This document shows positions 4,525-52,300 of a stretch of DNA of 64,000 nucleotides, in pieces. Position 1 is the stretch's first letter, and each line of letters begins with the position of its first letter. The stretch covers positions 62,001 to 126,000 of the forward strand of contig CALYLW010000699.1 of NCBI GenBank assembly GCA_944989445.1. Reading direction: 5' to 3'. Position numbers and translations under genes: made by a program. The notes under the pieces were generated by a model that saw nothing but the letters and a program-made list of their open reading frames with translations, did no database searches and was not told the DNA's origin. The stretch comes from Ampullaceana balthica. Lineage: Eukaryota > Mollusca > Gastropoda > Lymnaeidae.

Positions 4525-5960
4525 GCAAAAAATATATCATATCTTATCTGTTACAGATGCTAATTTAATACAGAAGATTATTGCGTCCCACGCTTATCCA
4601 TGGTCTAGTCCTACGTTCTTATTCAAGTTTTAAATGTTGATATAGTGTTGGTTTTCCTGGTTTCTTCAGGCAACCCATCCACGCCCGAATTCCGGACGGG
4701 AAGAACGAGAATTTGTATGTGTTTGTTCTAACATTGTTCTTGCATGCGGAATAAGAAAAGTGTTTTTATCCTTATATCTATCCGAAGGTTGTATTAAGTT
4801 ATCTTTGTGTTGTATTTCTAAATTAGAATTAATTGCCTTATATATTATTATTATTTTACTCTGGGTTCTTCTATCCTTTAGTGTTTCAAGGTTTAATGAT
4901 TTAACTAATGGTGTTATTCTTGTCAGTTTTGAATATTTTCCAGTAATGAATCTGGCAGCTCTTTTTTGAATTTGTTCTAGTTTATCCATGTTTTCTTTAG
5001 TGGATGGATCCCATACAGAAGATGCATATTCTAGTGCAGGTCTCACCAAAGCGAGAAAGCCTTTTAGTTTATATTCTTATTACATCTGTAAAAGTTTCTT
5101 TTTATAAAGCCTAAGGTTTTGTTTGATTTTTTGATTACTTCATTGACATGGGGATTCCATGATAGTTTCTCATTTATTATGACTCCTAAATATTTTGCAT
5201 GTTTTCTAGGTGGAAAGACATACTCCAGTTAGTTTCCCATTTTATTCATTCATCTAAGTCTTTTTGTAAGATTTTGCCATCTTGCTCTGATTTAATTGTT
5301 CTATAGATTATACAATCATCAGCAAATAACCTAACTTTTTTTCTGTTGACATGTTGTTGGGTAAATCATTTATATAAATTAAAAAGAGTAAGGGACCTAG
5401 CACAGTTCCTTGTGGAACTCCTGAGTTAACCTTTATTGGTGCAGATTTAGATCCATTAATTATTACAGTTTGCTCCCTGCCCAAAAGGAAGTCTTGGATC
5501 CAGTGATGTAAGGAACCTGAGATTCCAAAGTAGTTAAGTTTTTTAAGTAAACTAAGGTGGTGATCTTTGTCAAATTCTTTTGAGAAGTCAAGTAATATTG
5601 TGTCTATTTGATCGTTATTGTCTAAGCCTTTTGATAATTCATCTATTAAACCTATTAATTGTGTTTCACATGATCTGTTTTTTCTAAAGCCGTGTTGATG
5701 TGAGCATAGGGCATTATATTTGTCTAGGTGGCTAACTATTTTACTATATATTATGTGTTCTAGTAATTTACAGGTGATACTAGTAAGTGATACAGGTCTG
5801 TAATTACCAGGGTCTGATTTATCACCTTTCTTAAAGAGTGGAGTTACGTTAGCTAATTTACAATCCTGGGGCACTTTACCCTGGTTTAGAGAGGCTTGAA
5901 AAAGAACTACAAGGATTGGGGACAGTTCATTGCTTAGTTCCTTTAATAACCTTGCAAAAT
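4525..5960 (-). mobile_element. LINE family 1, broken copy (non-LTR reverse transcriptase)
   Basis: Minus-strand frames 5308-5874 and 4666-5049 encode reverse transcriptase pieces: [42 protein letters not shown], then [15 protein letters not shown] and RAARFITG. A frameshift near 5330 destroys the region of the catalytic FADD. The 3' end is at the low coordinate, with a (GATAA)-type tail. It is similar to the copies at 29524 and 48128. The clade (CR1/Jockey-like) is inference. Confidence 0.8.
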
Positions 5961-6355
5961 AGAAAATATAGAAACAAAAATTAAGCTTTCGATAATAAAT
6001 TTGTAAACACCCATTTCTTAGACTGGACTCCTGGAAGGCTTTAAAAAAAATGTGTTACATTTTCGGTTGGCTTGTTTGGGGGGGGGCACAATAAGTGGGA
6101 AGTAGGGCGGATACTGACGACTATCTAACTGTAATATCGGTGGTCCGTTTGGTTTATTGATATCTCTTCACTTTAAGTGGTCAACATATCAACCGATGCA
6201 TGCCCGACCGCTTACCGTCAGAAATAAGTTTTTAAAACAAAACAACTATATCATGAAACGTTCAAATTTTTACAGCAGATTAACTTATTCTTTTGTGACA
6301 GGGGTAAGAATAGCCCCCGTGACTTCATCCAACATAATGAGACCCACTGAACTCA
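5961..6355. other. Intergenic, nothing recognised
   Basis: No open frame with family similarity and no clear repeat structure. Confidence 0.4.
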
Positions 6356-11283: not shown

Positions 11284-11550
11284 ATGTCTCGATTCGCTAT
11301 GAGGAGATTTCACAATCAAAACAGACGCCTAGCGACAGAAATCATGATCCTGTGGACCATCCTCAACGTGCTGGCCACGGTCACCAAGAGCGAGTACGAC
11401 TACTGCTACGATGACGTCACGAACGAGTACCTGGCCTGCCACCCAAACATGTTTGACGTCATGGTTCAAGACGTTGCCAAAGTCCGGGTGGATCCATCAA
11501 CGGCCACTTGCGGGTCTCCTGTGTCTTACTTTCGTCGGCTGGCGCCAAGG
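11284..11550 (+). CDS. Exon 1: signal peptide and start of LN domain
   Basis: The 89 codons end in phase 0 at donor GTAGGT (11551). The first Met is followed by an Arg-rich stretch; a second Met at 11344 (residue 21) begins a hydrophobic run [11 protein letters not shown] ending near residue 36, which is a good signal peptide, so initiation at 11344 is possible too. The mature part reads [14 protein letters not shown] and [11 protein letters not shown], which follows the netrin-G N-terminus (YDLC..YMACQP and LDPPDITCG in vertebrate NTNG1). The base composition is GC-richer than later exons. Confidence 0.85.
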
Positions 11551-26500: not shown

Positions 26501-27861
26501 AGTACTTTTTTTTAGTGATAGTCATTCATCAACATTTTAACGTGGGTTAGATCACACGCACCTCAGCTTTGTGAGGCGAGCGCACTGCACTATGACTTCG
26601 CTATCCAGCCTTAAGATTACCAGTAGTTAATTTATTGTATAAGTAAAAAACAAAACTAGCACTTTGTCGAAATAAAATATGGTCAAAGTCAAACTCATCA
26701 TGTGGACATAATTTATGGTTGTCCCCCTATCCGTTCGTATAACTAAACATATAGAATCTAGATAACTAATGCCTACGAGCCACAACTTATCGAGTTTAAG
26801 AAGTGTATTTGTGTCTCTTTGAAAATTTTATATAGGGGTCGTCCATACAGTACGTCTCGCTATTTTTGACCATTTTTAACTCCCCCCTCCCCCCTGTCAC
26901 AAATCTTGGACACCCCCCCCCCTTAAAGTACGTCACACTTTCGAACAATTTCTTTTTACATTACAAAATAATTAAAATTTAATATAAAACACGTGACGTC
27001 CCACATGCGGACTCCCCTGTCACAAACTGTCACGCTTTCTTACCCCCCCCCTAGAGCGTGACGTACGTTTATGGACGACCCCATATGCTATATCATCTAT
27101 AAGTAAGTTTTAAGTTTCTTTTGTATTTACTTGTTACTTTAAACACACAACAGGGTTCAATCAACGAAACATGTGACGCGTCAAACACTCTGCTCAAACA
27201 TCCGCCAAATTTTATGATAGATGACAACACCACCTCATGGTGGCAGAGTGTCAACATGTCTCCGGGAACTTCAGGTAATGTGGGTACATTGTCATTTCGT
27301 TCATTTGAGCGTACTGTTTCATTATGATTAGTTGTCTGTTTTTTTTTAATGAACGGTTCATCGTGGTGTTCTTTTAAACAGTCCACTGACCTTTCCAACA
27401 ATCTAATATTCTTTCCAACACTACACTGTTATTTCCAACATTCCAATGTTCTTATCCAACAAACCAATGACCTCTCCAACAATCCCACTGTTCTTTTAAA
27501 TAATCCAATGTCATTTACAACAAACCAATGTTCTTCCCAACAATCCAATGTTCTTTGCCCTGGCAGAATTGAACATCGACATCACTTTGTCATTCAACAA
27601 GACCTTCCGGATGAACAGTGACGTCATTATCACATTCAATTCTGGCCGTCCCGATAAGATGATCCTGGAAAAGTCAACTGACTTTGGACAGACCTGGAAG
27701 CCTCTACAGTATTACGCCAAGAACTGTGACGATTTTCAAGCTCAGCTCGTGCCTGAGGGCAGCATTAACCGTTGATAATCCCACAGCTGTCTTATGCACG
27801 AGCATGTAATCATAGTCTTTATTATTTTAACTGTTTGTGACCTCCCTCTCTCACTCTTCTC

Positions 27862-30800: not shown

Positions 30801-33800
30801 TAAAAATAGTATCTATTACTTACGTCATCATTCATATTATTACATCGACTTCAGATATAGAGAAACAACACCAAGAGCTGTCCCTGGTCGAGCTGTCAAA
30901 TTTGTAAATGAAGATCGTTTTGATCTTTTCCTTGGACCTCTAAAAATTAACTTTACGGGCTTCTATGAGGCATTGGAACTTAAATTGTTGGACTTCTTAC
31001 TCTTCACTGGTAAACAGAAAACAAAGTTTTAACTTCCTCAGTGTTATTTCAATCTTCAGCTGTCAACTTTTTATTTATAATTTTTAAGAGTAGTTTACAA
31101 TTTCAAAAAAAAATTCATCATACTTGGATATGAGAATGACTATATGTCAAACATAGAATATTTACTGATATTCTTTAGCTTTTTTTTTCAACCACAGATT
31201 TAAGAATCCGCCTTATACAGCCTCTTACTGATGGCAAAGTAACCTATGATATGTACTACTACGCCATTTCAGATATTCAGGCAGTTGCCAGGTGAGACTA
31301 GAATAATAACTTTCAGGATTCTACTGCCCTATGATGTATGACATAAGTTTTTAAAAAAAAATGGAATCAAAATATTTAAATTGATCTACATAAAATGCTT
31401 CAAAAACATATAATACATGACAAATAGGAAGAATTTTGTATGTGTTGTATAGATTGTTCATTGTTTGATCATAATTAAATGCTGCTTAATAAATAATATT
31501 TACAAATTTTCTCATATTTATTTTTAATGTACTGAATAGAAATATTTGATCAGATGAATTTAAGACATTCTTAATTTGATTTTATTGAAGTATAAAGGAA
31601 TTAAGGATTATTTTTGTGTGTTTTAGTTTATTTTCATGAGTGCATTAATTATTCAATCACATAAAACTTAGGGCATTGTACCATTTATATAATTTTTTTT
31701 TAAATCTCCATTTTTTTTCATGTGAGAAAAAATTCTCAAATTTTTAATTTCTTAAGATTTAAAAAGAACATTTATTCTATCAGTTTGAATGAAATAAAAT
31801 ATTTATAAGCTTATACAATACATGATGACTTATACAATACATGATGACTTATACAATACATGATGACTTATACAATACATGATGACTTATACAATACATG
31901 ATGACTTATACAATACATGATGACTTATACAATACATGATGACTTATACAATACATGATGACTTATACAATACATGATGACTTATACAATACATGATGAC
32001 TTATACAATACATGATGACTTATACAATACATGATGACTTATACAATACATGATGACTTATACAATACATCATGACTTATACAATACATGATGACTTATA
32101 CAATACATGATGACTTATACAATACATGATGACTTATACAATACATGATGACTTATACAATACATGATGACTTATACAATACATGATGACTTATACAATA
32201 CATGATGACTTATACAATACATGATGACTTATACAATACATGATGACTTATACAATACATGATGACTTATACAATACATGATGACTTATACAATACATCA
32301 TGACTTATACAATACATGATGACTTATACAATACATCATGACTTATACAATACATGATGACTTATACAATACATGGTGACTTATACAATACATGATGACT
32401 TATACAATACATGATGACTTATTTTTTTGTGTGTGGGAGGATAGATGCTTCTGCAACCTTCACGCAGCAAATTGTAACTACACAACTACAGATATCATCT
32501 GTGATTGTGAACACAACACAATGGGCAAAAACTGTGAGATGTGTAAACCTCTGTATAATGAGAGACCTTGGCAGAAGGGAAGCTACATTCCATACCCTAA
32601 AGGGCAGGCAAATCCTTGTATTAGTAAGTATTTAAATTTATAGAAGTTATAATGAAGACCAAATTTTTTCCAAGTTAAATGTCCTAAAAGTTTAAATATT
32701 TTTATTTCATCTTGCCAAGAATTTTATAATTATTGTATTTCTATTTGAATTTTCATGACTTTATTGTAACTTGAAATAACAATAAATTTTAAATTAAGTT
32801 TAACTAATATTCTGGTTGTTGGCCAAATGCCTAATGCTAGTCTTACTAAATTTGAAGCCGGCAACCTACGGCTAAAAGTACTACACATTAACAAATCATC
32901 AATAACTGTAATTTATATCTTATAAACTAATTTTAATAAGCAAAAACTAAGTTTCCTCAAGCATTTTCAATAGAATTAAGCCATAAGAATGTTAGTTTTT
33001 CAAATAATAAATTATAATTGGGTGCTGTTACAGCTCTATATTCAATAGTTAGCTTAATTTTGATATATAAATTATTGAACTATAAAACATGTAGCAAATT
33101 ATTATTATATGGCTGTTGTATAAACAGTTGAGTGATAAACAAGTACGTTTCTTCCCTCATGGTTTGTGTGACAGGTGGTAAGAAATTCTGTGGGCTCTTA
33201 AAAATAGTTTGAAAATATTAAGTTCCTTTAAATAAAAGTTTGATTTAATTATAAATTAGTTTATGTGTTTTAAGAAGACCGTTAAGCTGTTTAATTTCCT
33301 CCTGGTGATGTAATATAAGAAACATAATTTGAAAATCCAACAAAACTGAAGGCTTTATAAAAAGATAATTTTACAAACTTAATAGGAACTTAAAACTAAA
33401 ATGCTAACTTACATTGGTCAGACCTTTTCTAGAATATTCATCTTTAGTATGGGACCCAATACATAAGACATTAAATTATCACTTGGAAATACAACACATC
33501 AGCAACCTAATATAATAATTAAGTAGACATAGGGATCAAAAAACAATTCTCTTACTCCATTTGCAAGAACAAACACATACAAGAACAAACACACACAAGA
33601 AAAAACACACACAAGAACAAACACACACAAGAACAAACACACACAAGAACAAACACACACAAGAACAAACACACACACAAGAACAAACACACACAAGAAC
33701 AAACACATACAACAACAAACACACACAAGAACAAACACACACAAGAACAAACACACACAAGAACAAACACACACAAGAAAAAACACACAAGAACAAACAC

Positions 33801-36800
33801 ACACAAGAACAAACACACACAAGAACAAACACACACAAGAACAAACACACACAAGAACAAACACACACAAGAAAAAACACACACAAGAAAAAACACATAC
33901 AAGAACAAACACATACAAGAACAAACACATACAAGAACAAACACATGCAAGAGAAAACACACACAAGAACAAACACACACAAGAAGAAACACATACAGAA
34001 GAAACACATACAAATCCTCATTGTTCCCATCTTGCATTTGAGCAAGGAATGGTTGCCTTAGCAAACCAGGAAAATCCACAGACTATCACCATTCAAAACT
34101 CTAATAAAAATTGCAAAACTATACATAAACCACAGATATTTGTAGGAAGCAATAATATTCTGTATCTGTAAAATATAATGTAAGTTGTAGATTGAAAGCG
34201 TTAAGGCAAGGACACCTGCGAGATCAATACCAAAAAACTTCCAACTTACGTCCCAGCAAAACCAGACAGAATACAATAAAAAAACGTAGAACATTTATCC
34301 AAACTAATTTTACAACACCAATTTAGATTAAATCCCCTTTGCATTAAACTTATTGTCTTTGGTTTTACGTCCAAAATAAAACTTGGTTTCAATTTTTCAC
34401 AAGTTTTTAATATTTTTTTTTAAACTACAGAATGTGAATGCAATGATCATGCAGAAAGTTGCACTTATAATGCAACCTATGGCCGTGGAATATGTGATGT
34501 TTGTCTACATAATACAAGGGGATACCACTGTGAGCTGTGCGTTCTCAAGTATTATCCAAATATTTCATTACCTCTAAGTGATAAAGAAAGGTGTATAGGT
34601 AAAATACAATACGTTTTAACTTTTTATGACACTTCTAATTGAGTTCAAAGGAAAAAAAATGTACAAACTGCATGTTTGCCAAAGACTTTGCAACTTAACC
34701 TTTCGAACAGATTGATAGCCTTAATAAGTGAATAAATGAATTTAGATCTGATTAAAATATAAATAAAATTAAAGTATTATAAACTTAAGAGTAAAATTTA
34801 AAAATGATGTATAAAATTTTTTTAATAGTTTTGGAATATTAAATGGACATTTTTATTCATATCAAATGTCTATTAAAAATATTTTTAAAAAGACAATAAT
34901 TTTAGTTATGTGGACCTCATTCCTAGGGTTTTAATTTTCAATAAAATGTAAAGTATTGAAAATATTTTGATCTTTTCACTTTTGGATAGCATTGTATGCA
35001 ACTTGTAAACCTTACACAGTTAGTCATAATTTTAAATCATTAAGCTGTAACAGCTTTTTGAGGTTTGAAATATTGACATACTATTGATTTAGGAATCTAT
35101 GAAACAGAAGGTATTCTAAGTTATTATTTTTATTGAGCAAAATTTTACATTGTTTAAAGTTAGAAACTTATAATTATTGTAATCATCTGATTTTTGAAAT
35201 TGTTATTATTGAACTAATATTTAACTTATTTATAAGATTTCATTGCAAGATAATAACAGTTCATTATGTGTGTATTTTGTCAAATAATTTGATGAACTTT
35301 ATGTCTTGAAGTATTATTAAATTCATGTTTCATGTTAATCAGCATAGGAATAAGAGATTTTACATAATTTTTTATTGATACCTTTGATATAAATAATGCT
35401 GTGCCTTAGCTACCCTTGTGTTATTAAAGTGTCAAAGAATTGTTTCAAGTTTATAAAGTAAATCATGAATAAATTTAATTTTGTAAAAAATACAACACAT
35501 AATATAGAATGTAATCAATAAAATTATTTTTCAATTTAATAGTAATTGAATTTAAAATGCTCTCTGCTTTTCTTTCAAATGCTTAAAAATTTTTTTATTT
35601 TTTTTTAAATCAGCTTGTAATTGTGAGCTCCTGGGAGTTTTGGATCAAAACCTTGTTTGTTCTCAAAGTAATGAAAATGGAGGTCCTGAAATAGGTCAGT
35701 GCATGTGTAAAGCACTTACAACAGGACGTAGGTGTGACGTGTGCAAACCTGGTTACTATGGACTATTGACTGGACCAGTGCCTGGAAATTGCACAGGTAA
35801 AAGAAACAAGATTTTTTATTTACAGAGGTAGTTTAGACATGCACATTTTATTTATAAAATCTTATTGCTTTATATTTTTATACCTGAAATAAATTATAGT
35901 CTACAATGAATTACACAAATATTTGTATACCTGAAATAAAATCTAGTCCACAATAAATAAAAAATATTTTTATACCTGAAATAAAGTTTAGTCTACAATA
36001 AATAACACAAATAGTTGTATACCTGAAATAAACTATATTCTACAACAAATTCTGATATTAGAATGCAACTGTAACCTCGCTGGCACTGTTGGAGAAAGCA
36101 ACACATGTGCTCAAGACACCGGCCAATGTCCATGTAAGAACACAACTGAGCACAGAACATGTGACGCATGTAAAGATGGATATTACTCATTTCCAGCTGA
36201 CAATCACCAGAGAGTAAGATTAAGTTTTATTTATTATTTTTAAAAATGTTTTGTTTGCCATGGAACGGTTTAAAATATATAATATATTTGCAAAGTGAAG
36301 AGAAATACATTTGCAGTGAAGGTAAATAAATAGTTTTCGGTTTTCATCTAAAAGTAAGTCAGCTAAAAAAATATGTTGTAGTAAGGCTGTAGATATCTAA
36401 CACCTTATATAGGTCTTGGAGCATCCCTGTCGTCCCTGTCATCCCTGTCGTCCCTGTCATCCCTGTCATCCCTGTCATCCCTGTCATCCCTGTCATCCCT
36501 GTCGTCCCTGTCATCCCTGTCGTCCCTGTCGTCCCTGTCATCCCTGTCATCCCTGTCGTCCCTGTCATCCCTGTCGTCCCTGTCGTCCCTGTCATCCCTG
36601 TCATCCCTGTCGTCCCTGTCATCCCTGTCATCCCTGTCATCCCTGTCGTCCCTGTCATCCCTGTCGTCCCTGTCATCCCTGTCGTCCCTGTCATCCCTGT
36701 CGTCCCTGTCATCCCTGTCATCCCTGTCATCCCTGTCGTCCCTGTCATCCCTGTCATCCCTGTCGTCCCTGTCATCTCTGTCGTCCCTGTCGTCCCTGTC

Positions 36801-39800
36801 ATCTCTGTCGTCCCTGTCATCCCTGTCATCCCTGTCGTCCCTGTCGTCCCTGTCATCCCTGTCATCCCTGGCAGTAGAAAATCATACCAAATAATTACTT
36901 GATTTTCTATCAAAACGTATACCTCTACCTAATCATTTATCTTTGTAATTAGCTTATCCAAATAGGATAAATGCTCTTACAAAAGAAAATGCTAAGTAAT
37001 ATGATATGAGCCTTCGAACCTGAATCTAGATAATGACAGTAGTAATCGGTAATTTTTATTTATGAAAAAAAAATGAAAATATAATGACTACAATTGAATT
37101 ATATAGCATTACTACTATCTAGGAATGCTTTTCCTGCAACTGTGACAAAGGAGGTTCACTTTCATCCATTTGTGATAAACTAAATGGTTCCTGTACTTGC
37201 AAAACAAACATCAACGGTTTAAAATGTGATCAACCAACACCTGGTAATTTGTTTCCTCATTTAAATAAAGATTATCAAAAGTATTACGGAAGAAATATTT
37301 TCATGCTATATCTCTTAAAATTTATTTGTTCAATGAAAAGTATTAAATTATGAAACATAAATTACACAAAAATACATAACCAGATTGTTAATTTTTATTA
37401 TTTTTATATTCTATCAAAGGATGCTATTCTTGCACAAAAAAATGCCCTGAAAAAAATATTAAGACAAAAATGATATTTTATTTGCTTTCAGCTAAAAGAG
37501 CAACGCTCGTGGGACTGATGATGATAAAACATATTGATTTAAAAATAATATTAATTTCAGGTACATTTATACCAGCTGTTGATGTGTTAACCTATCAGCC
37601 TTTACCTGGTACTTGTAACGTGACCAGTGACCTTTATACAGACCAACAGCCATTTGATGGGACTAAATTTGCCGTTTGTGACATTGGAGCTGGTAGTGCA
37701 ACACTACAATTTGAGAATGTTCTCGGTGGTATGGCTCAGCGGGCTCCCCAATGGTAAGTGCTGTCACAAAATTAATGTTGCATGATTTTTGTATCTGGCC
37801 TTGTGAGGTATATTTTTACTGAAAAATAATTATTAACTTAATTTTTTTCTGGGAAAATTTTTTTATACATTTTCCAAAATTGTTGGAGAATTTACAGATA
37901 ATAAAACTTTTTATATCAGTCCCTTTTGCTTTCATTTTTTTTTAAAACTATAGTTTATTTATCATAACCTTGAGATTTCTTTTTTAAAATCAGTTATAAA
38001 TTATATTGGAATAAAATCATGCACAAATACATTAATTATTTGCTAATTACAAATTTTATTTAAATTAATTCAATTTTTAGGCAACTTTCCACAATTGAAA
38101 TGTAAAGGGAATAACAGATTCATTATACTAAACATTTTATTACCAAATCATTTCAACAAAGTAAATCCATTCTATACTTGTGTAAATAAAGTTACAAAAA
38201 TGACCTGTTTCATAATTTTGTCAACCTGCTCAACTTTCTCATTCTTTTTAAGGCTGTACCTTGTGGCAGTGAGGTACTCTACCAATGTGTCAGCCATCAC
38301 TGGAACAGTGACAATCAGTGCTGTAAGAAACACGACCCAAGACTTGTCAGCATTGAGGATACGTTTAGGTCAGATTTTGACTGAGGGCTGCCCTGTCATC
38401 GGACAGTCCATTCAAGCTGACATCCAGTTAGTTGCAGGTTAGAGATCTTTGAACTTTGTTGAACCCAAAAGACTCTGTTAGAATATTTTTTTTTAAGCAG
38501 TGTTTGTTCACTTATACCCTGTGAGATGTAAGCTACTGTATTTGATAAATAGAGTCCAAATTATACGTACTGTTTCTTTGGTTTTGGACAAAGATTTCTA
38601 TTGCAACTGAGAAGATCTTGTTAGTTTATGTTAATGAAATATTCTCTTTTACTTTAAAGTTGTTTTTAATAAAATAGATCATTTTAATTATTATTTAATA
38701 AAGAAGAAAGAATAAAGAATAAATAATACATTTATCAACATTTAAATCTCTAATAAAAATGCAGGACTAAACACAAACCATAGATAAGCGTAGGACGCAA
38801 TAATCTTCTGTATAGAAGGAGCGTCTGTAAACAGATAAGATAAGATAAGAAGTAACAAAAAAAATTAATGTGAGATATATTGTTTAGATTGCTAAATATG
38901 CCTTTAATGTGAGATATATTGTTTAGATTGCTAAATATGCCTTTAATGTGAGATATATTGTTTAGATTGCAAAATATGCCTTTAATTTGAGATATATTGT
39001 TTAGATTGCTAAATATGCCTTTAATGTGAGATATATTGTTTAGATTGCAAAATATGCCTTTAATGTGAGATATATTGTTTATATTGCTAAATATGCCTTT
39101 AATTTGAGATATATTGTTTAGATTGCTAAATATGCCTTTAATGTGAGATATATTGTTTAGATTGCTAAATATGCCTTTAATTTGAGATATATTGTTTAGA
39201 TTGCTAAATATGCCTTTAATGTGAGATATATTGTTTAGATTGCTAAATATGCCTTTAATGTGAGATATATTGTTTAGATTGCTAAATATGCCTTTAATGT
39301 GAGATATATTGTTTAGATTGCTAAATATGCCTTTAATGTGAGATATATTGTTTAGATTGCTAAATATGCCCTAACGATTGAAAAAAATATGTTAACAGGG
39401 ATATCAGCAGGAATGATCTCAGAATTACAGAATTTGACCATTGACACCAGATGTGATTACAATTTAACACTTCAACTTCACGTGAATATTTCTTCAAGAC
39501 TAAAAAGAGAAATTAATTCAGCAGGCATGTGTTTTTTGGTTGCTGTTTTTTTTTCATTTTTTCTAACATTTTTAATTTCAAGTACTAATAATTTATACTT
39601 TTATTGTTAATTTTTTTCAAATATAATTCACATCAAATGAAATTTTGATATGGTTGCATAAATCCTTTTCAGGTTCTGTTATCACAGTTGATTCAGTGGC
39701 TTTACTTCCAAGACTTTCAACTTTAGATGGCTCTCTGAGCTTTGAAGTTTATGCAAAATCAGAAAACCAAACAAATACACGGGAAACCTATCTTTCATGC

Positions 39801-42800
39801 CTTCAGAAACTGTCATCTTTACTGACACGTCAACAAGCTCTTACCCAGTCTCCTTGTAAAGAGCTCCTGTATTCAGTGGGCGCTGAACTGTTTGACGGGG
39901 CTAAGGGTAAGGGTAATTTTCTCTAAAAAGGGTGAATGGAATTAAAATTAACAGCTGGATAGCAAAGTCAATAGTGTGCTCGCCTCACAAGCTGAGGGGC
40001 TGGGGATCTAGCCCACGTTAAAGCCACAATAAAAATGTTGATGAATAACTATTGCTAAAAAGTCCACCACTGACCTGGAGAGGAAATGGGTGCCACCAAG
40101 GTCTACCAAGCCCTGAGAAAACTCTAATAGCAACATCAGAACCCCCTACGACCACGAGGTTATGGGACACAAAAAAAACAACAGTTATAGAAGCTCACTT
40201 CACAAGTAAATTTAAAAAACCATTTGTGCAAGAGCAGTAAAAATAAAATCATTCTTCATCATCATAAAAGCCACTTAATAAATAAATAATATAAAAATCT
40301 ATTATTAAAAATTAAAGAAGTTTTTTTTACTACGTTTTCTTCTCAACCTTATGAATTATTTTTATAAGATATTGGCATAAATTCATCTTCTGTATTTCTT
40401 AATTCAGTATTGTATATTTCTTCTAGCGTGCAGTTGTAATGAAGTAAGTACCAAAAATGGGTCACTCTGTGAAGCCATTGGTGGAAAATGTCAATGTAAG
40501 CCAGGTGTTTCTGGGAGGGACTGTGGTATCTGCACGCCTGGCTACTTCAACTTTACAGACAGTGGATGTGTTGGTAAGTGCTTCTGTTGTTGTATGCCAT
40601 AATGGCTTTATACAAATAAAATTTTACAAATGAAACAAGAATATAAAACTAAAATGTAAACATAGATTGGTCAGACCTATACCAGAATATGCATCTTCTG
40701 TATGGCAACTATCTGACAAAGAAATTATAGAAATATAAAGTATACAATTATTTTTTATTATTATTAAAGAATCTATAGCTAAATTAAAAAAAGAGCTGCA
40801 AGAATCACTTCTGGTGAATATTCACTACTGATAAGAGTAACTCCATTAGTTAAATTACTAGAAACACTAGTGAATAGAAGAAAAATTTAGTAATAATACA
40901 TAAGGCATTAAATTCTATCTTGGAAATACAATACACCACAAAAATATATTGATCCTCCTTCCTGTCTGAAATTCTGGCATGGAATGGGTAATCTTAACAA
41001 ACCAGGAAAACCAACACAACAACAACATTCAAATATCTAATAAAAATGCAAGACTAGACATAATCCAGAGATAAGCATAGGATGAAATAATCTTCATAAT
41101 AGAATGAACATCTGTAGTGTTAGGATAAGAAGCATGAAAAGAGAGGAATGAAAATACTGAAGCACCTGGGAATGGCTGTGATTATAAGCATGTGTGTTAA
41201 TACTTGTACATTCTTAATGAGAATCAAATTTCATTTTCCTTTTAATTTAAGTTTTAAATGCACACAAATTTATAAAAATAAAGTCAATAGGATAAATCCT
41301 AAACAAATCAAGATGTAACTAATAACTCTGGACTACAGAAAAACATGTGAAGAGCTGACTAAATCTACAAAAGACACAGTTTTTCAAATAGCATTTAAGA
41401 TTTTAAGTCATAATCATAACTGTATTTCCACCCATCACTGAATGGATACCTGCCATTAGTTGTGGAAACAAAGATGGCTGTGCACAGTGTCACAGAATCC
41501 TCTCATAGCCATGGCCTGTGAACGCTGCATCACTTGTCAACAGGCCAGCATGATCTGTGCATTCTTATAAGAAAGTAGGATGCAAGAATCTACAGCACAG
41601 GAGGAGCGTCTGAAATGTGTATTAGTTTGATTTTTATGAACATAGTATTTGAATTTCTCTAGTGGTATTTGTCCTAAATTTTTAGTTATATTTGTGATCC
41701 ATTTATTATGTGTGTGAAGTATCGCTACTAGAAATTTACAATTCCTTTTAAATAAGTTTTTATTTGAACTTCAAAGGTTGTTTTTTTTTGTATCAAAGCT
41801 GGGCAGCCTGTCCTAAAACCACTGTATCATTTTTTGGGATATAAATTCAAAAATATTTAAGAAAAAGCATTAACTTTTTGGATTAAATTACTATTTTGAA
41901 AACAATTATTAAAATTAATGGTCAAAGTATTTACACAAAATTTAAATATTCTTAAAATCATTTATATTTTACAATATATTATTAGAATAAGAAAATTTAC
42001 CAAAGATACAGTGAGTTTTATTATTTTTTTTAACTACCAGGCTGCCCGGCTTTGCCCTGTGAGACAGAGGTTATTGCCCCTAGGACTACAACCACCATCT
42101 TGCCCACCACTTCAACAGCTATTAATACAGCAACATCACCAGCAGAAGTCTCAAATGCCACCTCCACCACAGCAACTACCTCTACAATTAAAAATACATT
42201 GGCACCATCAACATTACCGACAACGGATTTCTCTAATACCACCTCGACAAATATAACCGTTATTGAGAGCAAGGATGAAGGCCTATCTGGTGGATTCATT
42301 GCACTCATTGTCATCTGTGTCATTATTGTTATCATCATTATCATCCTGATCATCTGGTGCAGATGCCGAGGCCCAAGTAAAAGAAACAAAAAGAAGAAGA
42401 CTGTTGCAGATGGTCTGTACACTATAACAAGGTTAGGGCTGGGAAACCCAAATAGTCCAGTCTACAGCAACAGTCTGTACGATCGACATGTCAATTGGCT
42501 CAGTAGTGGTGGCAGGAGTGGTCCCCCTGAACAGATGACAACTTTCACCATCTCCAACACGGAAGAGGGATCAGATAGTGTGTTTGAATCAGCCAATGAT
42601 CATTCCAGCACACTCAATGCCCGGCCCGAATTTTACATTGCCTCCGATGACAACTCAGGTGGCCTTGACATGAAAAAAGCCGCGCAGCTTAATTTGAAAC
42701 ATTCACCTCCCCAAGCTTTAAGATCCACACCTTCAAATCAACTGACGTATTTGGATAGAAAAGATTTAAAATCGCCTCATGGACACACTGTCAGTGAGAT

Positions 42801-43377
42801 TAACTTTGATGCTAACTTTAACAGAGATATCTATCCCCACAAGCCCAGGTCAACGAGTGCAGATGTGGGGGCCAGTGACTCAGCAAACCTGAAAACCTCT
42901 GATCTGTACAATGGGTCGAGACTGCACCAGTGGAGACCCATAACTGATTTGAGGATGTCTGCAGTTGTGCAGGATAATGAAAACAGTGATGACAATCATT
43001 CAACCTCTGATCTCTTTTCAACATTCAAACCGCTGTTAGCAAACGGAAAGCCTAAAACGAAACCCAAAAGTTTTAGAAGACCTTCGGTTAAAAAAAGAAA
43101 AAAATCCCCCCAAAAGCCAGCAAGGCAAAAAAGGCCGAAGCGAAAGTCCAGTTTTGTTGACAGAATTATCCCCCCTCCCCCGATGTACATGGGAGATAAC
43201 CCAGGGTTTGTTCCTGACCCAGACTACGACAGTTATAGTGACAGCCATCCATTCATCCCCTGGCCAGATTATTCAGTTTTTGGAAGTTATGACAATCCTG
43301 TCTTCATTCCTGAGCCCGACTACCCAATTTTTGCTGGCTACGATTCGTTTGACGAGATAAATGGATCCTTAGTCTGA
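11284..43377 (+). CDS. Mosaic laminin-like protein, short transmembrane isoform
   Basis: Exons 1-15 are joined to the alternative last exon at 42041. Exon 15 ends in phase 1 and the acceptor at 42041 continues the frame (completing a Gly codon, then Cys-Pro-Ala), giving about 1299 aa. The product would be signal peptide, netrin-G-type LN, LE repeats, beta-type domain IV, one LE, Thr-rich stalk, one transmembrane helix (about residues 939-960) and a cytoplasmic tail of about 339 residues. Inference: a cell-surface receptor or adhesion molecule. Vertebrate netrin-Gs are membrane-bound through GPI, so a transmembrane anchor would be a different solution. The alternative reading, two separate genes back to back, is discussed in the findings. 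Confidence 0.75.
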
Positions 43378-46300
43378 CTTTGGTTTTTTGTGCCATCCCA
43401 TCCATGATTTTTTTTATTGCTTAACCATGGCTAAAAACTATGGCTAAAAAGTATGACATTTATATATAAAGAATATTAATCACAACATTGAGTATAATTT
43501 AAACAACTGAACATTTTCTTGGATGTTTGGATCTTCCTTTAAATCCATGGATAACTAATAACACTCTTATGGAGTATTAGAGTAATGGATACAGTAAAAA
43601 AATATAATCACGTACATTATGAAGCTAAAAGTTTCTGAGACCAACTGATATTGTCTTCAGAATATTGTATCATTCATGATAGAATTGTGTCATTGGCATT
43701 GCATATGGAATTTAATTTTTTAAAAGGTGCACAACAAAAGATGTAATACAAACAATACTTCATTTAAAAGAATCCAAGAAACAGATTTTTTTTCAGTTTT
43801 AATATGATGGTAAATAATTGTTTATATAAATTATATTACTGTCATTTATTACAAATGTACAAAACTACCTTATTAAATCATTAAAAGATTTTCATTGAAA
43901 ATCATTGAAGATCTTTAAGTGTTTTCTTAGAGTTAAAACTAGCTTAAAGGAGGTCATAAATTCAAGAAAATTACGATAAAATTAATAATGAACATTGGAA
44001 CAAATCAAATTTCAAAAGGATCTTTCCTAGAATTGTAATTATGTTAAAGGTCAATATTTAGTTTAGCCTATTCAACTTTACATTAATAAATTCCACATAG
44101 ATGAATCCATAGTGCTATTCTGCTCAACACTTTCATAGTTGACATAAATTAAAGTTGTCACATTGAAAGTTACTAATGTATTTTAAAAATGTTCAGACAA
44201 TTAAAGAAACAATAGATTTTCTAATTCAAAACAATTTCTTTTCTCCAGCTTGTAACTGCCACCAGAAGGGATCTCAAAATGGAGCATGTGACTTGAAATC
44301 TGGGGCCTGCCTATGCAAGAACAATGTCTTAGCACTTGGGGACAAATATCTTGATAACAGTACTTTTACTGACAGGACATGCAGCAGTTGTAGAACTAAT
44401 TACTACGGTATTAACAATGGAACTGGATGCTTAAATTGTGAGTGCAATAAAAATGGGTCAACCAGCTTGCAGTGTGATGAAACAGGACAGTGTCCTTGCA
44501 AAGATAGTGTGACTGGAAAGAAATGTGACGTCTGCAAGGGAGGTTACTTTGGATTTGGAGAATATGGCTGCAGGTAAATTAAGTTGTATAAATGACTTTG
44601 TAATAACATGTCTATGTGAATACTTACACATATATGAGTACACCCTTGAAAGAAATATTTCAAACCAGTAATTTGACTTTGTAATAATATGTCAATATGA
44701 ATACTGTTCCAGGTATGAGCACACGGTTGCAAGAAACATTTCAAACCAGTAATTTATTTGTGTGGTGTTTTCATAGCTATGACTCAAAGGAAATTATATT
44801 AACTGCTATAATTACTTTTTCATTCCTGACATTGTGCCAGTAATTAAATCATAAATAAATCTTCTTCTAGAGTTATAATCTAAAAAAAATGTATAGTATT
44901 TTCCTTTTACATCTTTGAACCATTTAAAAGAAGTAGATTTATTCAGTAATTAAAAAAAACCAACAAAGCAGTGATTTGTCTATTTCAAAATATCCCATCC
45001 CTTATTTTGGCCCATAGTCTCAAGCATACCTTAATCATATTGTCATAAAAATCCTCTTTATTAATTATTATCAAATTAGAACACAGAAAACATCCAAATG
45101 ACAATTAATTTATTTTTATCTTCCTCAGAATAAATTTGTAGTTAAATCTCAAAGCTATGTTATACACCAGGCAAATTTTTAAATGGTTTTATTCTTTGAA
45201 TGTAATCTTTAGCGCCTGCAACTGTTCGGTCTCTGGAGCCACTTCTGTGTCCTGTAATGTTAGCACTGGAGAATGTTCCTGTAAGAAAAATGTAGCAGGG
45301 ACAAAATGTTCTTTGTGCAAGGAAGGTTTTTTTAATCTTGCTACCTACAACCCAGATGGCTGTCAACCATGTTTCTGCTACCAGCACAGCACCAACTGTA
45401 CATCCGCTCCTGAATTCCAGTCTAAGCTGTGAGTCTTTGGCTTATGTGCTGTATGTTTAAACAACTTTCACATTTTTTTCTTTAAAAAAAATAAAATTTC
45501 ATGTTAATAATTGATTTATTTTAAAAATAAATTCCTCATATGTTCTAAATTACATAACATGACTGTTTTACAAATACATACTAAAATCTTGTATATATTT
45601 ATTGCATCTTTTCATTTCTATTAAAGACGCACCAGAATTTTATTTAATCCTATTCTTATTTATGGTATATGTTTAGTCTTGCATTTTTATATTAGAATTT
45701 AAATGTTGATAGTATGTTGGTTTTCTTGGCACTATCTGTTCCATGTCCACATTCCAGAAGGGTAAAATGAAAATTTGAAAAAAGGCGACTGGGAATAGGG
45801 TGGAACCCTCATAGCCGTGGCCTGTGAATGTTGCATCACTTGCCAACAGACCGGTATGGTCTGTGGATGCAATAATATTCTGTATAAAACGAGCATCTCA
45901 TAATTTCATGAACCTCAACTTCTATTGGTATTGTTATTTTCAGCTAAATAAAGACAAAGTTATATTTTATATTTATATGTTGCATGATGTTTGTGATACT
46001 GATAAATGAATGCAAAAAAACCACTCAAATACAAAATTCTATGTTTCATCAAATAACAGTGTTCTTAAGTTGTCAGGTTTAAGTATCCATTACAAAAAAG
46101 GCGCATTATTTATGATATCCGTCGAGTTCTCTGGAAATATTTTTCATTTATTTAGGCCATAAACACTAAACCCAAAATTGATTTGTGAGGATGGCATATA
46201 GGTTATAGGTTGTGCTTTGGCAAAATCATGTTAGTCATCTTTTTAATAATATTTATGTTTGTTGTGGTGCTCATCATGTTCATAAATTCACAGGTTAAAA

Positions 46301-49300
46301 GTAAGTGAGCCCTTGAGTGATCTTTCTTTGCTTCTTGGAGACCACCATTCTTCTTATGGTCAGATTTTGTCCTTGAGACTTGAAAGTAGCTCTGTCATTG
46401 ACCTAAAAGATTCTACTCTTCTTGTGCTGACAGGAAATGGTAAGTTCCTCCTGGGGAAAATCTAACTACATGTAATTTTATTCTCAAATTGTAAACTTTT
46501 GCAGCAATGAATAGTTTATTATTAATGATTAGTTTAATGATATCACTATTGTGCTTGAAAATATGTCTTTTAATTGCATTCTAGCATACATTTTTCTTTG
46601 ATAGTTATTTCTATTTATCATAAACCCAGTGCTTTTTTTGTAAAAAAAAATTGGTGCCTGTACTCAGTGATGGATTGCCTAACTTTGAACTAGTTTCATA
46701 TTTTATATTTTAATTCTTATATTCAATTTTAACAAATTAATAATATAATAAATTAATAATAAACGTTAAAATACAAGAAAAGTAATCATTTTTTCCCACA
46801 TTGAAAAAGGTGCCGGTACGCCGTACCGGTGCGTATCGTCACAAAAAAAGCACTGCATAAACCCAAGGAATTTAATATTAGCTCTAAATAAACATAAACT
46901 GCAGATGTAAAAAAAATCTCTCCACCCCATCAAATAAGAATTAGAATACAAGTTTTTGTAAGTGCTATGTAATCTGAAGGAACCAATCTTGATTCTCATC
47001 TCCATACCTTATTGTATAAGCCAATTTAATTTTATTACTAAAAATTATTATTTTATTGTTTTTGAGAATGTATTTATATTTAATTATTCAGTAATTTAGC
47101 ATGTTTTCGATATAGTACTAATCTATTGTTATAGGTAAAACCCTATCTCATGTTGTACCAAATGAAACATTTATCAACTCCACATTGATATATGAAATCC
47201 GCTTGCTAGAGCAGAACTGGAAGTTAAATGATGGTCAGAATATTACTATTCCTACAGCAATAAATGTTATAGGTAAATAATGTTTTTCACCCATCTTTTA
47301 GTGATTTTAAACAATATTTTCAAATATTTGAATTTTTAAATTACGAAACTTCAGTAATACAAATTTAGCCTTTTTAAAAAATAAAATTCTTATGTAACTT
47401 GAAGATATAGCAAAGCTTTTTATAATAATTATATCAAATCAAGACATGAAAAGTTTTAATCTTACTATTTATTTAAGCGGCCAGCTTGTATAGCATGTCT
47501 TGTTATTGCTCAATTAATTTTTTCACCAGAAATGAAACATTTTGAAGATTGTGTAACATATAATAAGATGATACCTGAGACTGTCAAGTTACTGATGCTC
47601 TCCTTATTTGAAGGCTTCTTTGTCTTCCTGGTCATTTCTAGGCTTAGGTTACATGGATCTTCAATAACCGTTACCAGCATTGTCTTATCAAAGAGCATTA
47701 AATCAAAATAGATTTTAAAATCTATGGTTTTAGAACACCTGAATAACTCATCCCCTTTATGTTTCTATTTCTGATAGAAATTTTGGCAAACTTGACTGGG
47801 ATCACTCCTGTTTCAAATGCTAAAGGACAACCAGTGAAGGTCACATATCTTGCATTGATGTCAGCTGAAAAATCTAACACAAAAGTGGGAGCCGAAATCA
47901 GTGCAGTTACTTATGTTGAGCAATGTACTTGTAATGAAACCACACATACTGGAGGTAATTGTATCCTCATATGTGGGGGAAATAGTTAAGCATGCAACAT
48001 TTAACACAAGACCCGATGATTTGTTAATATTTTTGGGGACATAACATTTATCGTATTAAGAATTTGTATTCTTATAAATTCCCAATACATCCCAATACCC
48101 ACCCTATTCCCAGTCGCCTTTGTTTAAGCCTCTCTAAACCAGGGTAAAGTGCCCCAGGATTGGAAATTAGCTAACGTAACTCCACTCTTTAAGAAAGGGG
48201 ATAAATCAGACCCTGGTAACTACAGGCCTGTATCACTTACTAGTATCACCTGTAAATTACTAGAACACATAATATATAGTAGAATAGTTAACCACCTTGA
48301 CAAATATAATGCCCTATGCCCACATCAACACGGCTTTAGAAAAAACAGATCATGTGAAACACAATTAATAGGTTTAATAGATGAACTATCAAAAGGCTTA
48401 GACAAAAATGATCAAATAGATACAATATTACTAGACTTCTCAAAAGCATTTGACAAAGTTCACCACCTTAGTTTACTTAAAAAACTTAACTACTTTGGAA
48501 TCTCAGGTTCCTTACATCACTGGATCCAAGACTTCCTTTTGGGCAGAGAGCAAACTGTAATAATTAATGGATCTAAATCTGCACCAATAAAGGTTAACTC
48601 AGGAGTTCCACAAGGAACTGTGCTAGGTCCCTTACTCTTTTTAATTTATATAAATGATTTACCCAACATCTCAACAGGTACAAAAGTTAGGTTATTTGCT
48701 GATGATTGTATAATCTATAGAACAATTAAATCAGAACAAGATAGCAAAATTTTACAAAAAGACTTAGATGAATTGATAAAATGGGAAACTAACTGGAGTA
48801 TGTCTTTCCACCCAGAAAAGTGTCAACTGTTAAGAGTAACAAAGAAAAAGAAACAAATAAATTCAAAATATTACATTCATGGAAAAGAACTGACCCAAAC
48901 TAAAGATGCAAAATACTTAGGAGTCTTAATAAATGAGAAACTATCATGGAATCCCCATGTCAATGAAGTTATTAAAAAATCAAACAAAACCTTAGGCTTT
49001 ATAAAAAGAAACTTTAACAAATGTAATAGAGATATAAAACTAAAATGCTACCTCACTTTGGTGAGACCTGTACTAGAATATGCATCTTCTGTATGGGACC
49101 CATCCATCAAAGAAAACATTGATAAACTAGAACAAATTAAAAAAAGAGCTGCCAGATTCATTACTGGAGAATATTCGAAACTGACAAGAATAACACTATT
49201 AGTTAAATCATTAAACCTTGAAACACTAGAGGATAGAAGAACCAAAAGCAAAGTAGTAATCATACATAAAGCAATTAATTCTAATTTAGAAATACAACAC

Positions 49301-52300
49301 AAAGATAACTTAATACAACCCTCAGATAGACATAAGGATAAAAACACCTTTCTTATTCCGTATGCAAGAACAAACACATACAAGTTTTCCTTCTTCCCGT
49401 CCGGAATTCGGGCGTGGAATGGGTTGCCTGAAGAATCCAGGAAAACCAACACTTTATCAACATTTAAATCTCTAATAAAAATGCAGGACTAAACACAAAC
49501 CATAGATAAGCGTAGGACGCAATAATCTTCTGTATAGAAGGAGCGTCTGTAAACAGATAAGATAAGATATTTAATAATGAAATATCTTAAATATTTTAGA
49601 TACTTGTGTCAATTCTCATGCTAAAGTCAAATTAAAACACATAAAAATAAAGATCAAATTAGGAGGGGCGGTGTCAGCTTATATCAACAAACATATCTGG
49701 GATAGCATTTACATTGATAACATCATCAGCAATATAAAAACTGAGTTGAATACATGGTCAATAATATTATTGCACTTAAAAATAAATTCAATTCACAACT
49801 TATATTTAATATTATTTTAACAATACCAGTGAAAAAATATTATTGATAAAGCATTTTGTTTTAACAAAAAAATAACCTTTATTCTCTATATAACTATGGC
49901 TTATAAATGTATTATTTCATTAAGGTCTGTCATGCCAAAGCTGTGCTACAGGATACAGAAGAGATAACTCCTCCCAAACTTCACCTTATGGCACATGCGT
50001 CGCATGCAACTGTAGCAAGCGTGGGGCAACAGAACCGCCAGAGTGCAATGAACTCTCAGGGGTGTGTCTCAACTGTCGAAACGGCACCCAGGGGGAGCAT
50101 TGTGAGAACTGTGCACCTCATGTAGGTGGTGTGGAATGTGATGTCTGTGACGAGAAGTTCTGGGGCCTCCAGGCTGACGGCTGCAGGGGTCAGTTTCAAA
50201 GTTAATGCAGTGATAATAAATGATTTATAATAACTGGAGGATTGACACCAGGTTTATTAGAAAGTTATCAGTAAAAAAAAATTATGGATGGGAAAACCTA
50301 AAAAAATTGACTCAACAAATTTAGAACATGTCAGTAAGAAGTCTTCTTTTCCTGTACTTTGTGTATACTAATGTCATTAAGAAGTCTTCTTTTCCCGTAC
50401 TTTGTGTATACTAATGTCATTAAGAAGTCTTCTTTTCCTGTACTTTGTGTATACTAATGTCATTAAGAAGTCTTCTTTTCCTGTACTTTGTGTATACTAA
50501 TGTCATTAAGAAGTCTTCTTTTCCTGTACTTTGTGTATACTAATGTCATTAAGAAGTCTTCTTTTCCCGTACTTTGTGTATACTAATGTCATTAAGAAGT
50601 CTTCTTTTCCTGTACTTTGTGTATACTAATGTCATTAAGAAGTCTTCTTTTCCTGTACTTTGTGTATACTAATGTCATTAAGAAGTCTTCTTTTCCTGTA
50701 CTTTGTGTATACTAATGTCATTAAGAAGTCTTCTTTTCCTGTACTTTGTGTATACTAATGTCATTAAGAAGTCTTCTTTTCCTGTACTTTGTGTATACTA
50801 ATGTCATTAAGAAGTCTTCTTTTCCTGTACTTTGTGTATACTAATGTCATTAAGAAGTCTTCTTTTCCTGTACTTTGTGTATACTAATGTCATTAAGAAG
50901 TCTTCTTTTCCTGTACTTTGTGTATACTAATGTCATTAAGAAGTCTTCTTTTCCTGTACTTTGTGTATACTAATGTCATTAAGAAGTCTTCTTTTCCTGT
51001 ACTTTGTGTATACTAATGTCATTAAGAAGTCTTCTTTTCCTGTACTTTGTGTATACTAATGTCATTAAGAAGTCTTCTTTTCCTGTACTTTGTGTATACT
51101 AATGTCATTAAGAAGTCTTCTTTTCCTGTACTTTGTGTATACTAATGTCATTAAGAAGTCTTCTTTTCCTGTACTTTGTGTATACTAATGTCATTAAGAA
51201 GTCTTCTTTTCCTGTACTTTGTGTATACTAATGTCATTAAGAAGTCTTCTTTTCCTGTACTTTGTGTATACTAATGTCATTAAGAAGTCTTCTTTTCCTG
51301 TACTTTGTGTATACTAATGTCATTAAGAAGTCTTCTTTTCCTGTACTTTGTGTATACTAATGTCATTAAGAAGTCTTCTTTTCCTGTACTTTGTGTATAC
51401 TAATGTCATTAAGAAGTTTTCTTTTCCTGTACTTTGTGTATACTAATGTCATTAAGAAGTTTTCTTTTCCCATACTTTTTGTATAATAATTATTTTATGG
51501 GTTGGAGTAACACTAATAGTTTAATGTCATAGATTTTAAAAATGAATTATTGAAGACTTTGCCTTTATAGTTGTGTGTTTATAGTTGTGTGTTTATAGTT
51601 GTCTGTTTATAGTTGTGTGTTTATAGTTGTTTTATCTGTAACCACACTAAATACTTTCTACTAAATTCCAGCCTGCAACTGCACTGATCCAGGTTCCAAG
51701 TCTCCTGTATGCAACAAGACTTCTGGGCAGTGTGAGTGTGCTAGTCATGTGACTGGGAGAACATGTGATCAATGTGAGGAAAACTTCAACGGCCTGTCAT
51801 CAAACGGATGTGTTGGTTTGTGAACATTTAAATATTTTATATTTCAAGAATGGTGAAAGAATAATTGGAATACTATTACAGAAAAGCACAACTATAAAAT
51901 GGGATAGAGGGAAAAACTCCATGTTAAGAAACTAACTTAGAATTTTTTTTTAATTGAACCACAAAAGTGAGAATTACTTCATGAAGTTACATTGTTTTTT
52001 GTTGTTTTTCCATAGTGAAAATTTCATTGTTCTCATCCCCAGAATGTGATTCTTGTTACTCACTGATCAAGACTTCCATTTTGCCACTTCGCCAGCTGGA
52101 GGCAGACATCAGGACCAACATCTCAGCTCTTGAGAACAAGGATATGAACAAAACCTTGGGGCCATTCATGGCCCGCTTCATTGAAGCACAAGCAGCTCTC
52201 AACCAGCTGATTCAGTTTGTAAGTTATTGTTTTAATTTTTTTTTGCAGCACAAGAAGTTTGATATGGAGCAGATTTTTATACTTTGAACTTTACATATTT

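What the first reader, a model, noticed from the sequence alone, without database searches (positions are those of the whole stretch)
42041..43377. Alternative last exon turns a laminin-like chain into a transmembrane receptor
Seen: an exon with a good acceptor continues phase 1 from exon 15 and encodes a Thr-rich stalk, a 21-residue hydrophobic helix, a basic stop-transfer and a 339-residue tail, then a stop and a poly(A) signal, all located between LE exons of a laminin gene. The same exon 15 donor joins exon 16 at 44249 in the same phase. Known: laminins are secreted, and netrin-Gs are GPI-linked. Inference: alternative polyadenylation or splicing yields a membrane receptor and a matrix chain sharing their N-terminal half, letting one gene act as ligand and receptor.
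Basis: partly seen in the sequence, partly recalled or inferred. Interest (0 to 1): 0.9.

Follow-up and report, generated by a model that had tools for sequence, protein, structure and literature searches.

The report
Laminin gene with transmembrane last exon
A snail gene for a laminin-type matrix protein carries an extra last exon that would anchor its front half in the cell membrane with a tail inside the cell, and protein models with the same arrangement exist in other snails, an abalone, a limpet and two annelid worms.

Summary
The exon at 42041-43377 follows the exon-15 donor (40573) in phase 1 and encodes a Thr-rich stalk, one hydrophobic helix, a basic stop-transfer and 339 more residues. 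Its first in-frame Met lies behind the helix, so the helix needs upstream exons.

It is conserved. Eight further protein models from seven species (Bulinus x2, Bradybaena, Elysia, Patella, Haliotis; annelids Owenia, Capitella) carry CPxxxC, a helix and a tail, seven of them directly after LE6. The seven complete tails end DE(I/V)(N/K)GS(L/M)V, a PDZ-ligand-like end. Haliotis rubra isoforms X1 (long) and X2 (membrane) are identical for 666 residues and part at the end of LE6. A transcript-sized relative joins exon 15 to 16.

The chain is neither beta nor gamma: LN-LE5-LF-LE-L4-LE-coil, with a netrin-G-type LN (249 bits; next type 131). In an LN tree, vertebrate netrin-Gs fall inside its clade, with moderate support.

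Best reading: one gene, by alternative last exon, makes a secreted chain and a netrin-G-like membrane protein. No RNA junction was read; the receptor role is inference.

The parts
11284..11550 (+). Exon 1: signal-peptide-like start ([14 protein letters not shown]..., by eye) and start of LN domain
   Evidence: 90% identical to P0003 residues 1-89
27154..27805 (+). Exons 2-3 of LN (27154-27274, 27567-27805); exon 3 has a one-base frame change near 27759-27766
   Evidence: (PF00055 4.6e-19 on the exon 3 frame)
30855..31291 (+). Exons 4-5 (30855-31009, 31198-31291): end of netrin-G-type LN
32445..37243 (+). Exons 6-10 (32445-32623, 34431-34598, 35614-35796, 36062-36213, 37123-37243): LE1-LE5; LE5 as read has only the first six Cys, as in laminin beta
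   Evidence: LE5 rule from PMC5338690 (passages)
37561..39906 (+). Exons 11-14 (37561-37753, 38253-38437, 39399-39524 with GC donor, 39673-39906): LF-type (laminin IV type B) domain
   Evidence: PF21199 22.4 bits, below its cut-off of 27; profile link to Patiria P0017, whose same stretch scores PF21199 41.6 bits
40427..40573 (+). Exon 15: LE6, last exon shared by both isoforms; donor GTAAGT
   Evidence: (PF00053 1.8e-10)
42041..43377 (+). Alternative last exon: CPALPC, Thr-rich stalk, transmembrane helix (42295-42357), basic stop-transfer, cytoplasmic tail ending DEINGSLV, stop
43378..44110 (+). Probable 3'UTR of the membrane isoform; AATAAA at 44085
   Evidence: pattern only
44249..45429 (+). 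Exons 16-17: LE7 and following LE of the long isoform
   Evidence: P0003 joins LE6 to this exon directly
46295..51814 (+). L4 (laminin B) domain and following LE exons of the long isoform
   Evidence: PF00052 1.5e-10 in P0003
52042..60458 (+). Coil-region exons of the long isoform, to its stop; no C-terminal Cys (coil assigned by resemblance to gamma chains, no coil predictor run)

Best explanation
This is one gene with two 3' ends. Splicing exon 15 to exon 16 gives a secreted laminin-type chain (LN-LE1-5-LF-LE6-LE-L4-LE-coil). Splicing exon 15 to the exon at 42041 and ending near 44090 gives a type I membrane protein: netrin-G-type LN, six LE and LF outside, one helix, and a mostly variable cytoplasmic tail ending in a conserved PDZ-ligand-like tetrapeptide (GSLV). 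Shown here: the exon anatomy, the conservation of the join and of the C-terminus across gastropods and two annelids, and two annotated isoforms with one shared N-terminal part in Haliotis rubra. Inferred: that both are made in this species, that the membrane form reaches the cell surface, and that it acts as a receptor or adhesion molecule tied by its C-terminus to a PDZ scaffold while its LN domain binds laminin-type LN domains or a netrin-G-ligand-like partner.
For: Anatomy. Chance control. Tail conservation: 49% identity to Bulinus; with the last 12 residues removed, the window's cytoplasmic tail scores z 67, 26 and 22 over shuffles against Bulinus, Bradybaena and Elysia. Membrane form in other species: of 74 fetched proteins, 9 have a hydrophobic segment beyond residue 60; one (P0072) is a netrin-G2 C-terminus and the other 8 are this protein. 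All 9 membrane forms, window included, have CPxxxC at the start of the tail; 8 of 9 end DE(I/V)(N/K)GS(L/M)V (the Elysia model runs on), and of the 74 fetched proteins only those 7 others end GS(L/M)V. Tail bodies of annelids against molluscs are at shuffle level (12 pairs, z -0.8 to 0.8). Exon order in Elysia: one model runs from LF through the tail into LE7. Long isoform: P0003 (1887 aa on a 6605-base contig, too small for this about 49-kb gene, so a transcript or processed copy) joins LE6 directly to exon 16.
Against: No RNA-seq could be searched, so the 40573-42041 junction is unseen in this species. In the lists, Physella, Aplysia, Biomphalaria and Lymnaea stagnalis show only long-type models, and the two annelids only the membrane form, so both forms from one gene are documented only in Haliotis, by annotation. 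A tail-only search (proteins of about 244-777 aa, capped at 7994 candidates) found nothing at E 0.01, so no tail transcript fragment was seen. Exon 3 carries a frame change that would truncate both isoforms if real. The PDZ reading rests on a recalled consensus.
Confidence: 0.87

Rival explanations
1. Two neighbouring genes rather than two isoforms: an LN-LE-LF-TM gene ending at 43377 and a separate LE-L4-coil gene starting near 44249.
For: Annelid models (Owenia, Capitella) stop after the tail and no protein named as an annelid long form appeared. The downstream part looks gamma-like to my eye (recalled comparison), while the upstream LF is of beta type.
Against: P0003 is a transcript-sized sequence running from LN through the coil. 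Proteins of 1775-1972 aa with LN, LE and L4 in their precomputed Pfam lists are listed for Physella, Aplysia, Gigantopelta, Patella, Liolophura, Haliotis, echinoderms, hemichordates and Nematostella. Haliotis rubra X1 and X2 share 666 residues.
Confidence: 0.05
2. The exon belongs to a nested gene with its own promoter in intron 15, unrelated to the laminin transcript.
For: The exon is large and could in principle be a host-intron gene.
Against: No in-frame ATG before the helix (first Met at residue 165, helix at 85-105). In 7 of the 8 sequences, window included, the tail follows LE6 directly; in Elysia's model it follows LF.
Confidence: 0.02
3. The exon is a conserved but rarely used or degenerate remnant, and the gene (with its frame change in exon 3) is decaying in this species.
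For: One-base frame change in exon 3; no transcript for the tail found.
Against: The other stretches matched to P0003 and printed (only rows over 60% identity were printed) are 63-97% identical and open; the 62.9% row also covers repeat sequence upstream of exon 6, where its one stop lies. The tail frame is open over 444 codons with motif-level conservation. A single-base indel in an assembly is common.
Confidence: 0.06

Closest known systems
Netrin-G1/G2 (GPI-anchored synaptic adhesion proteins)
   Same: LN-LE1 is closest to netrin-G1/G2 among solved chains (249/233 bits against 131 for netrin-1), and the LN tree puts netrin-Gs inside this chain's clade (97/95 for a 27-row clade). Both are membrane-held LN proteins.
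   Different: Transmembrane with a cytoplasmic tail instead of GPI; LF and six LE; a long secreted isoform. Netrin-Gs are described as exclusive to vertebrates (PMC4706652, passages).
Canonical laminin beta and gamma chains
   Same: Long isoform has LN, an LE array, an LF-type domain after a truncated LE5 (beta), L4 inserted in an LE (gamma/alpha), and a coil region of about 580 residues (P0003 1309-1887).
   Different: LF and L4 in one chain; no Cys near the C-terminus in the 11 bilaterian members listed (the two gamma and two beta chains listed have one); has a membrane isoform.
Laminin chain type of Amphimedon, Nematostella and Strongylocentrotus described by Fahey and Degnan 2012
   Same: Probably the same chain type as the long form (title seen in reference lists; the content is recalled, the paper was not held).
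   Different: A membrane isoform is not part of what I recall from it.
Usherin (USH2A)
   Same: LN plus LE ectodomain, one TM helix, C-terminal PDZ-binding motif, and a proposed alternative short isoform (PMC7317166, passages).
   Different: Usherin has LG and 32 FN3 domains. Here Pfam listed no FN3 or LG in six members at E 0.01.
LaNt alpha31 (LAMA3 short isoform)
   Same: LN-containing product of a laminin gene made by an alternative 3' end (PMC9788559, passages).
   Different: LaNt comes from intron retention and has a short unique C-terminus; here a spliced, conserved terminal exon adds a helix and tail.

Membership tests
Laminin superfamily (LN+LE) | LN followed by LE repeats | tested here: met
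   PF00055 1.3e-36 and 11 PF00053 stretches in P0003; window stretches map to it in order at 63-97% identity; PF00055 and PF00053 on single window exons
Canonical laminin beta chain | LF domain after a truncated LE5 | tested here: met
   Met, but weakly in the window: PF21199 22.4 bits, E 9.4e-5, below the cut-off of 27; no solved structure matched the domain alone at E 1; a mollusc LF profile found annelid members, Patiria P0017 and Glandiceps P0023 but none of the beta chains among 17 proteins; P0017 scores PF21199 41.6 bits over the same stretch
Canonical laminin beta chain | no L4 domain; LN of beta type | tested here: not met
   PF00052 in P0003 and matching L4 exons in the window; LN scores 93 bits to beta1 against 249 to netrin-G1
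Canonical laminin beta/gamma chain | C-terminal Cys (beta-gamma link; role recalled) | tested here: not met
   last Cys 114 or more residues from the end in 11 of 11 bilaterian members listed; near the end in both Nematostella members
Netrin-G | netrin-G-type LN and LE1 | tested here: met
   AU test against holding netrin-Gs outside p=0.038
Netrin-G | GPI anchor and three LE only | tested here: not met
   TM helix plus 339-residue tail; six LE plus LF before it
Usherin | FN3 array and LG domains | tested here: not met
   none at E 0.01 in the six proteins; the window's own joined model was not scanned whole
Usherin-like working (PDZ-tethered LN receptor) | TM helix and C-terminal class I PDZ ligand | tested here: inconclusive
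   GS(L/M)V end in 8 of 9 membrane forms, window included; PDZ binding itself not testable here, consensus recalled
LaNt-type short laminin isoform | shares N-terminus with a laminin chain through an alternative 3' end | tested here: met
   Haliotis rubra X1/X2; by annotation, not by reads

The most novel reading that the evidence does not exclude
Netrin-G-type LN proteins were never vertebrate-only. They descend from an ancient LF+L4 laminin chain, and in lophotrochozoans the same gene still makes both the matrix chain and a transmembrane, PDZ-linked receptor. Vertebrates lost the matrix chain and kept a membrane-held fragment as netrin-G. The matrix chain and its membrane twin may co-polymerise through LN domains, so that a cell could read or anchor its own laminin-like matrix.
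Probability: 0.35. Interest if true: 0.9.

Novelty: new variant of a known kind. Interest (0 to 1): 0.8.

Why it matters
Laminins are taken to be secreted only. A laminin-type gene with a conserved transmembrane isoform would give a direct link between basement-membrane-type LN domains and an intracellular scaffold. It offers invertebrate models for the origin of netrin-G synaptic adhesion, a family described as vertebrate-exclusive. It makes a question testable: was membrane tethering of this LN lineage ancestral or gained twice? Genome annotation hides these genes under names such as 'laminin alpha-3-like', 'alpha-5-like' or 'hypothetical protein'.

Tried and rejected
Tail homologues elsewhere: a tail-only profile search gave none at E 0.01; low-complexity Thr words may have crowded the capped 7994 candidates. 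The tail has no PDB relative at E 1. The Pfam TMEM154 hit (26.4 bits, cut-off 30.3; 25.5 bits in Bradybaena) covers stalk and helix and was rejected as compositional. I first took the 5.5e-25 match to laminin beta-2 LE5-LF-LE6 as proof of LF; the LF domain alone has no PDB match at E 1, so that hit is probably carried by LE sequence and is no longer used. Separate-gene and nested-gene readings were rejected as given above. An alpha chain (relatives are named alpha-3-like and alpha-5-like) was set aside because LN scores 126 bits to alpha-5 against 249 to netrin-G1 and Pfam lists no LG in P0003. 'Shared phase proves splicing' was rejected because LE exons 7, 8, 9 and 15 start in phase 1.

Literature: searches for transmembrane, membrane-anchored, membrane-bound, membrane-tethered and laminin-like transmembrane laminin gave 4 papers, none on this by title or start of abstract. 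The listings showed none either and one search returned no paper. Most subscription papers are not held.

An error of mine: the clade tests left out P0003 through a name filter; they were rerun and one search is not used.

Full report
What was checked. The finding describes an exon at 42041-43377 between LE exons of a laminin-type gene. I read the sequence, modelled the exons and checked them against a relative's protein. The exon-15 donor, the alternative acceptor, the exon-16 acceptor, the phases, the helix, the 339 residues after it, the stop and the AATAAA at 44085 are as stated. The open frame is 447 codons from stop to stop; the longest in 60 simulated 64-kb sequences was 190. The first in-frame Met is at residue 165, behind the helix at 85-105, so the helix can only be made by splicing from upstream.

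The gene. Exons run from 11284 to about 60458. With P0003 (1887 aa, unnamed 'lgn' source, 88.7% identical over 857 residues) as template, stretches of the whole long chain map in order along the window. That call printed only rows over 60% identity; the LF exon 39399-39524 is not among them and rests. LN and LE1 are nearest to netrin-G1 (249 bits) and netrin-G2 (233 and 231), then netrin-1 (131), laminin alpha-5 (126), gamma-1 (113) and beta-1 (93). L4 is supported by PF00052 in P0003 (1.5e-10) and matching window exons. So the order is LN-LE5-LF-LE-L4-LE-coil, which is neither a beta nor a gamma chain. The coil was assigned by resemblance, without a coil predictor. Ten echinoderm, hemichordate and Nematostella relatives all carry LN and L4 in their precomputed Pfam lists, and 6 of the 10 carry LF as well.

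How firm the LF domain is. Of three LF exon frames tried singly, one gave PF21199 at E 0.0023 and two gave no family. The joined domain gives PF21199 at 22.4 bits (E 9.4e-5), below the curated cut-off of 27, and no PDB match at E 1. A profile of mollusc LF domains found Capitella, Owenia, Patiria and Glandiceps members, but none of the beta chains, among 17 proteins. The matched stretch of Patiria P0017 (595-778) is the one that scores PF21199 above cut-off (596-772, 41.6 bits). With its place after a truncated LE5, the rule given in PMC5338690 (passages), I take it as a diverged LF.

A defect. In exon 3 the reading frame changes by one base near 27759-27766. It may be an assembly error or a real lesion; both isoforms share this exon.

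Relatives of the membrane form. A search with the tail region (547 residues; capped, 7984 candidates scored) gave 9 proteins; the top two, from Bulinus truncatus, cover 100% and 90% of the region, tail included. A search with the LN-LF region gave 72 proteins at 1e-60 or better among 6529 candidates of about 715-2275 aa. Among all 74 fetched proteins, hydropathy flagged 9 with a segment beyond residue 60: P0001, P0002 (Bulinus), P0011 (Bradybaena), P0015 (Patella caerulea), P0016 (Elysia marginata), P0019 (Owenia), P0025 (Capitella), P0029 (Haliotis rubra X2), and P0072, a netrin-G2 with a hydrophobic C-terminus. In the first eight the helix stands where the alternative exon would put it. In Elysia's partial model LE6 is missing, the tail follows LF and runs on into LE7; this looks like a model error but places the tail between LF and LE7.

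What is conserved in the tail. All 9 membrane forms, window included, have CPxxxC at the start of the tail, and 8 of 9 end DE(I/V)(N/K)GS(L/M)V; the Elysia end is lost in its model. I aligned the window tail with seven others, one per species (P0002 left out as a near copy of P0001). With the last 12 residues removed, cytoplasmic tails align far above shuffles within heterobranch gastropods (z 9.7 to 67, 6 of 6 pairs) and between Patella and Haliotis (8.0). The other 21 of the 28 pairs lie between -0.8 and 2.8. So across phyla only the linker, a helix and the C-terminus persist. The end fits the class I PDZ-ligand consensus, which I recall and did not test.

One gene or two. The residues after the split (Ala/Glu in Haliotis; Ala/Gly in the window) are compatible with a shared first codon base, as a phase-1 donor requires; this is inference from protein for Haliotis and direct in the window. 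P0003 joins LE6 directly to exon 16 on a 6605-base contig, far shorter than this gene, so it is a transcript or a processed copy. Against this, Physella, Aplysia, Biomphalaria and Lymnaea list only long-type models and the annelids only the membrane form; absence from annotation is weak evidence either way.

Place in the family. An LN tree of 46 rows (339 columns) holds the window in a 27-row clade (97/95) that includes four netrin-G rows and one row of unnamed source besides P0003. Netrin-Gs join the deuterostome members with weak support (87/59), and the mollusc and annelid rows are held together at only 54/4. Keeping the 25 non-netrin-G members together without netrin-Gs is rejected only at p=0.038. 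The 29-row clade with Nematostella has 81/99 support. A review gives the view that netrin-Gs came from a beta-gamma ancestor (PMC9788559, passages), and netrin-Gs are described as exclusive to vertebrates (PMC4706652, passages).

How it likely works. Shown: one locus encodes both ends, and the membrane end is conserved in molluscs and annelids. Inferred: choice between splicing to 42041 with polyadenylation near 44090, and splicing on to 44249, sets the ratio of membrane protein to matrix chain. The membrane form would stand on a glycosylated Thr-rich stalk (24 Thr, 3 sequons in 84 residues), present the LN domain outward, and hold a PDZ scaffold inside. It works like usherin (LN-LE, helix, PDZ-binding end; PMC7317166, passages) and shares an LN lineage with netrin-G, but is a member of neither by architecture.

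Verdict. The receptor function is unproved. I found no report of a transmembrane laminin isoform in the listings, and one search returned nothing; the library lacks most subscription papers.

Noticed in passing
27567-27805 (near 27759-27766): One-base frame change in LN exon 3 relative to relatives; assembly error or real lesion.
   Followed up: partly
39524/39525: Exon 13 appears to use a GC donor (CAG|GCATGT) that keeps phase 1.
   Followed up: no
48128-49489 (+), 29520-30458 (+), 58068-59173 (+) inside the gene; 5311-6054 (-) upstream of it: Reverse-transcriptase-like frames of retrotransposon copies; only the 48128-49489 copy was tested (PF00078, 2.2e-38), the others are read by eye from frame translations.
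   Followed up: partly
50328-51490; 31810-32422; 33564-34013; 36422-36870; 38865-39370: Long tandem repeats between exons; the 19-base array at 31810-32422 ends just upstream of the LE1 exon acceptor at 32445.
   Followed up: no
   Followed up: no
C-terminus of the long chain (window about 60458; P0003 and relatives): The 11 bilaterian members listed lack the C-terminal Cys seen in the listed beta and gamma chains, while two Nematostella members keep it; assembly partners may differ.
   Followed up: partly
one search hit list: None of the 72 hits is named as a bivalve or cephalopod; no bivalve canonical beta chain is listed either, so the search may simply miss them.
   Followed up: no
window 43180-43330 (tail residues about 380-430): NPxF and F(I/V)P(E/D)PDY motifs, repeated several times in Bulinus, recall endocytic or PTB-type motifs (recalled, untested).
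   Followed up: no
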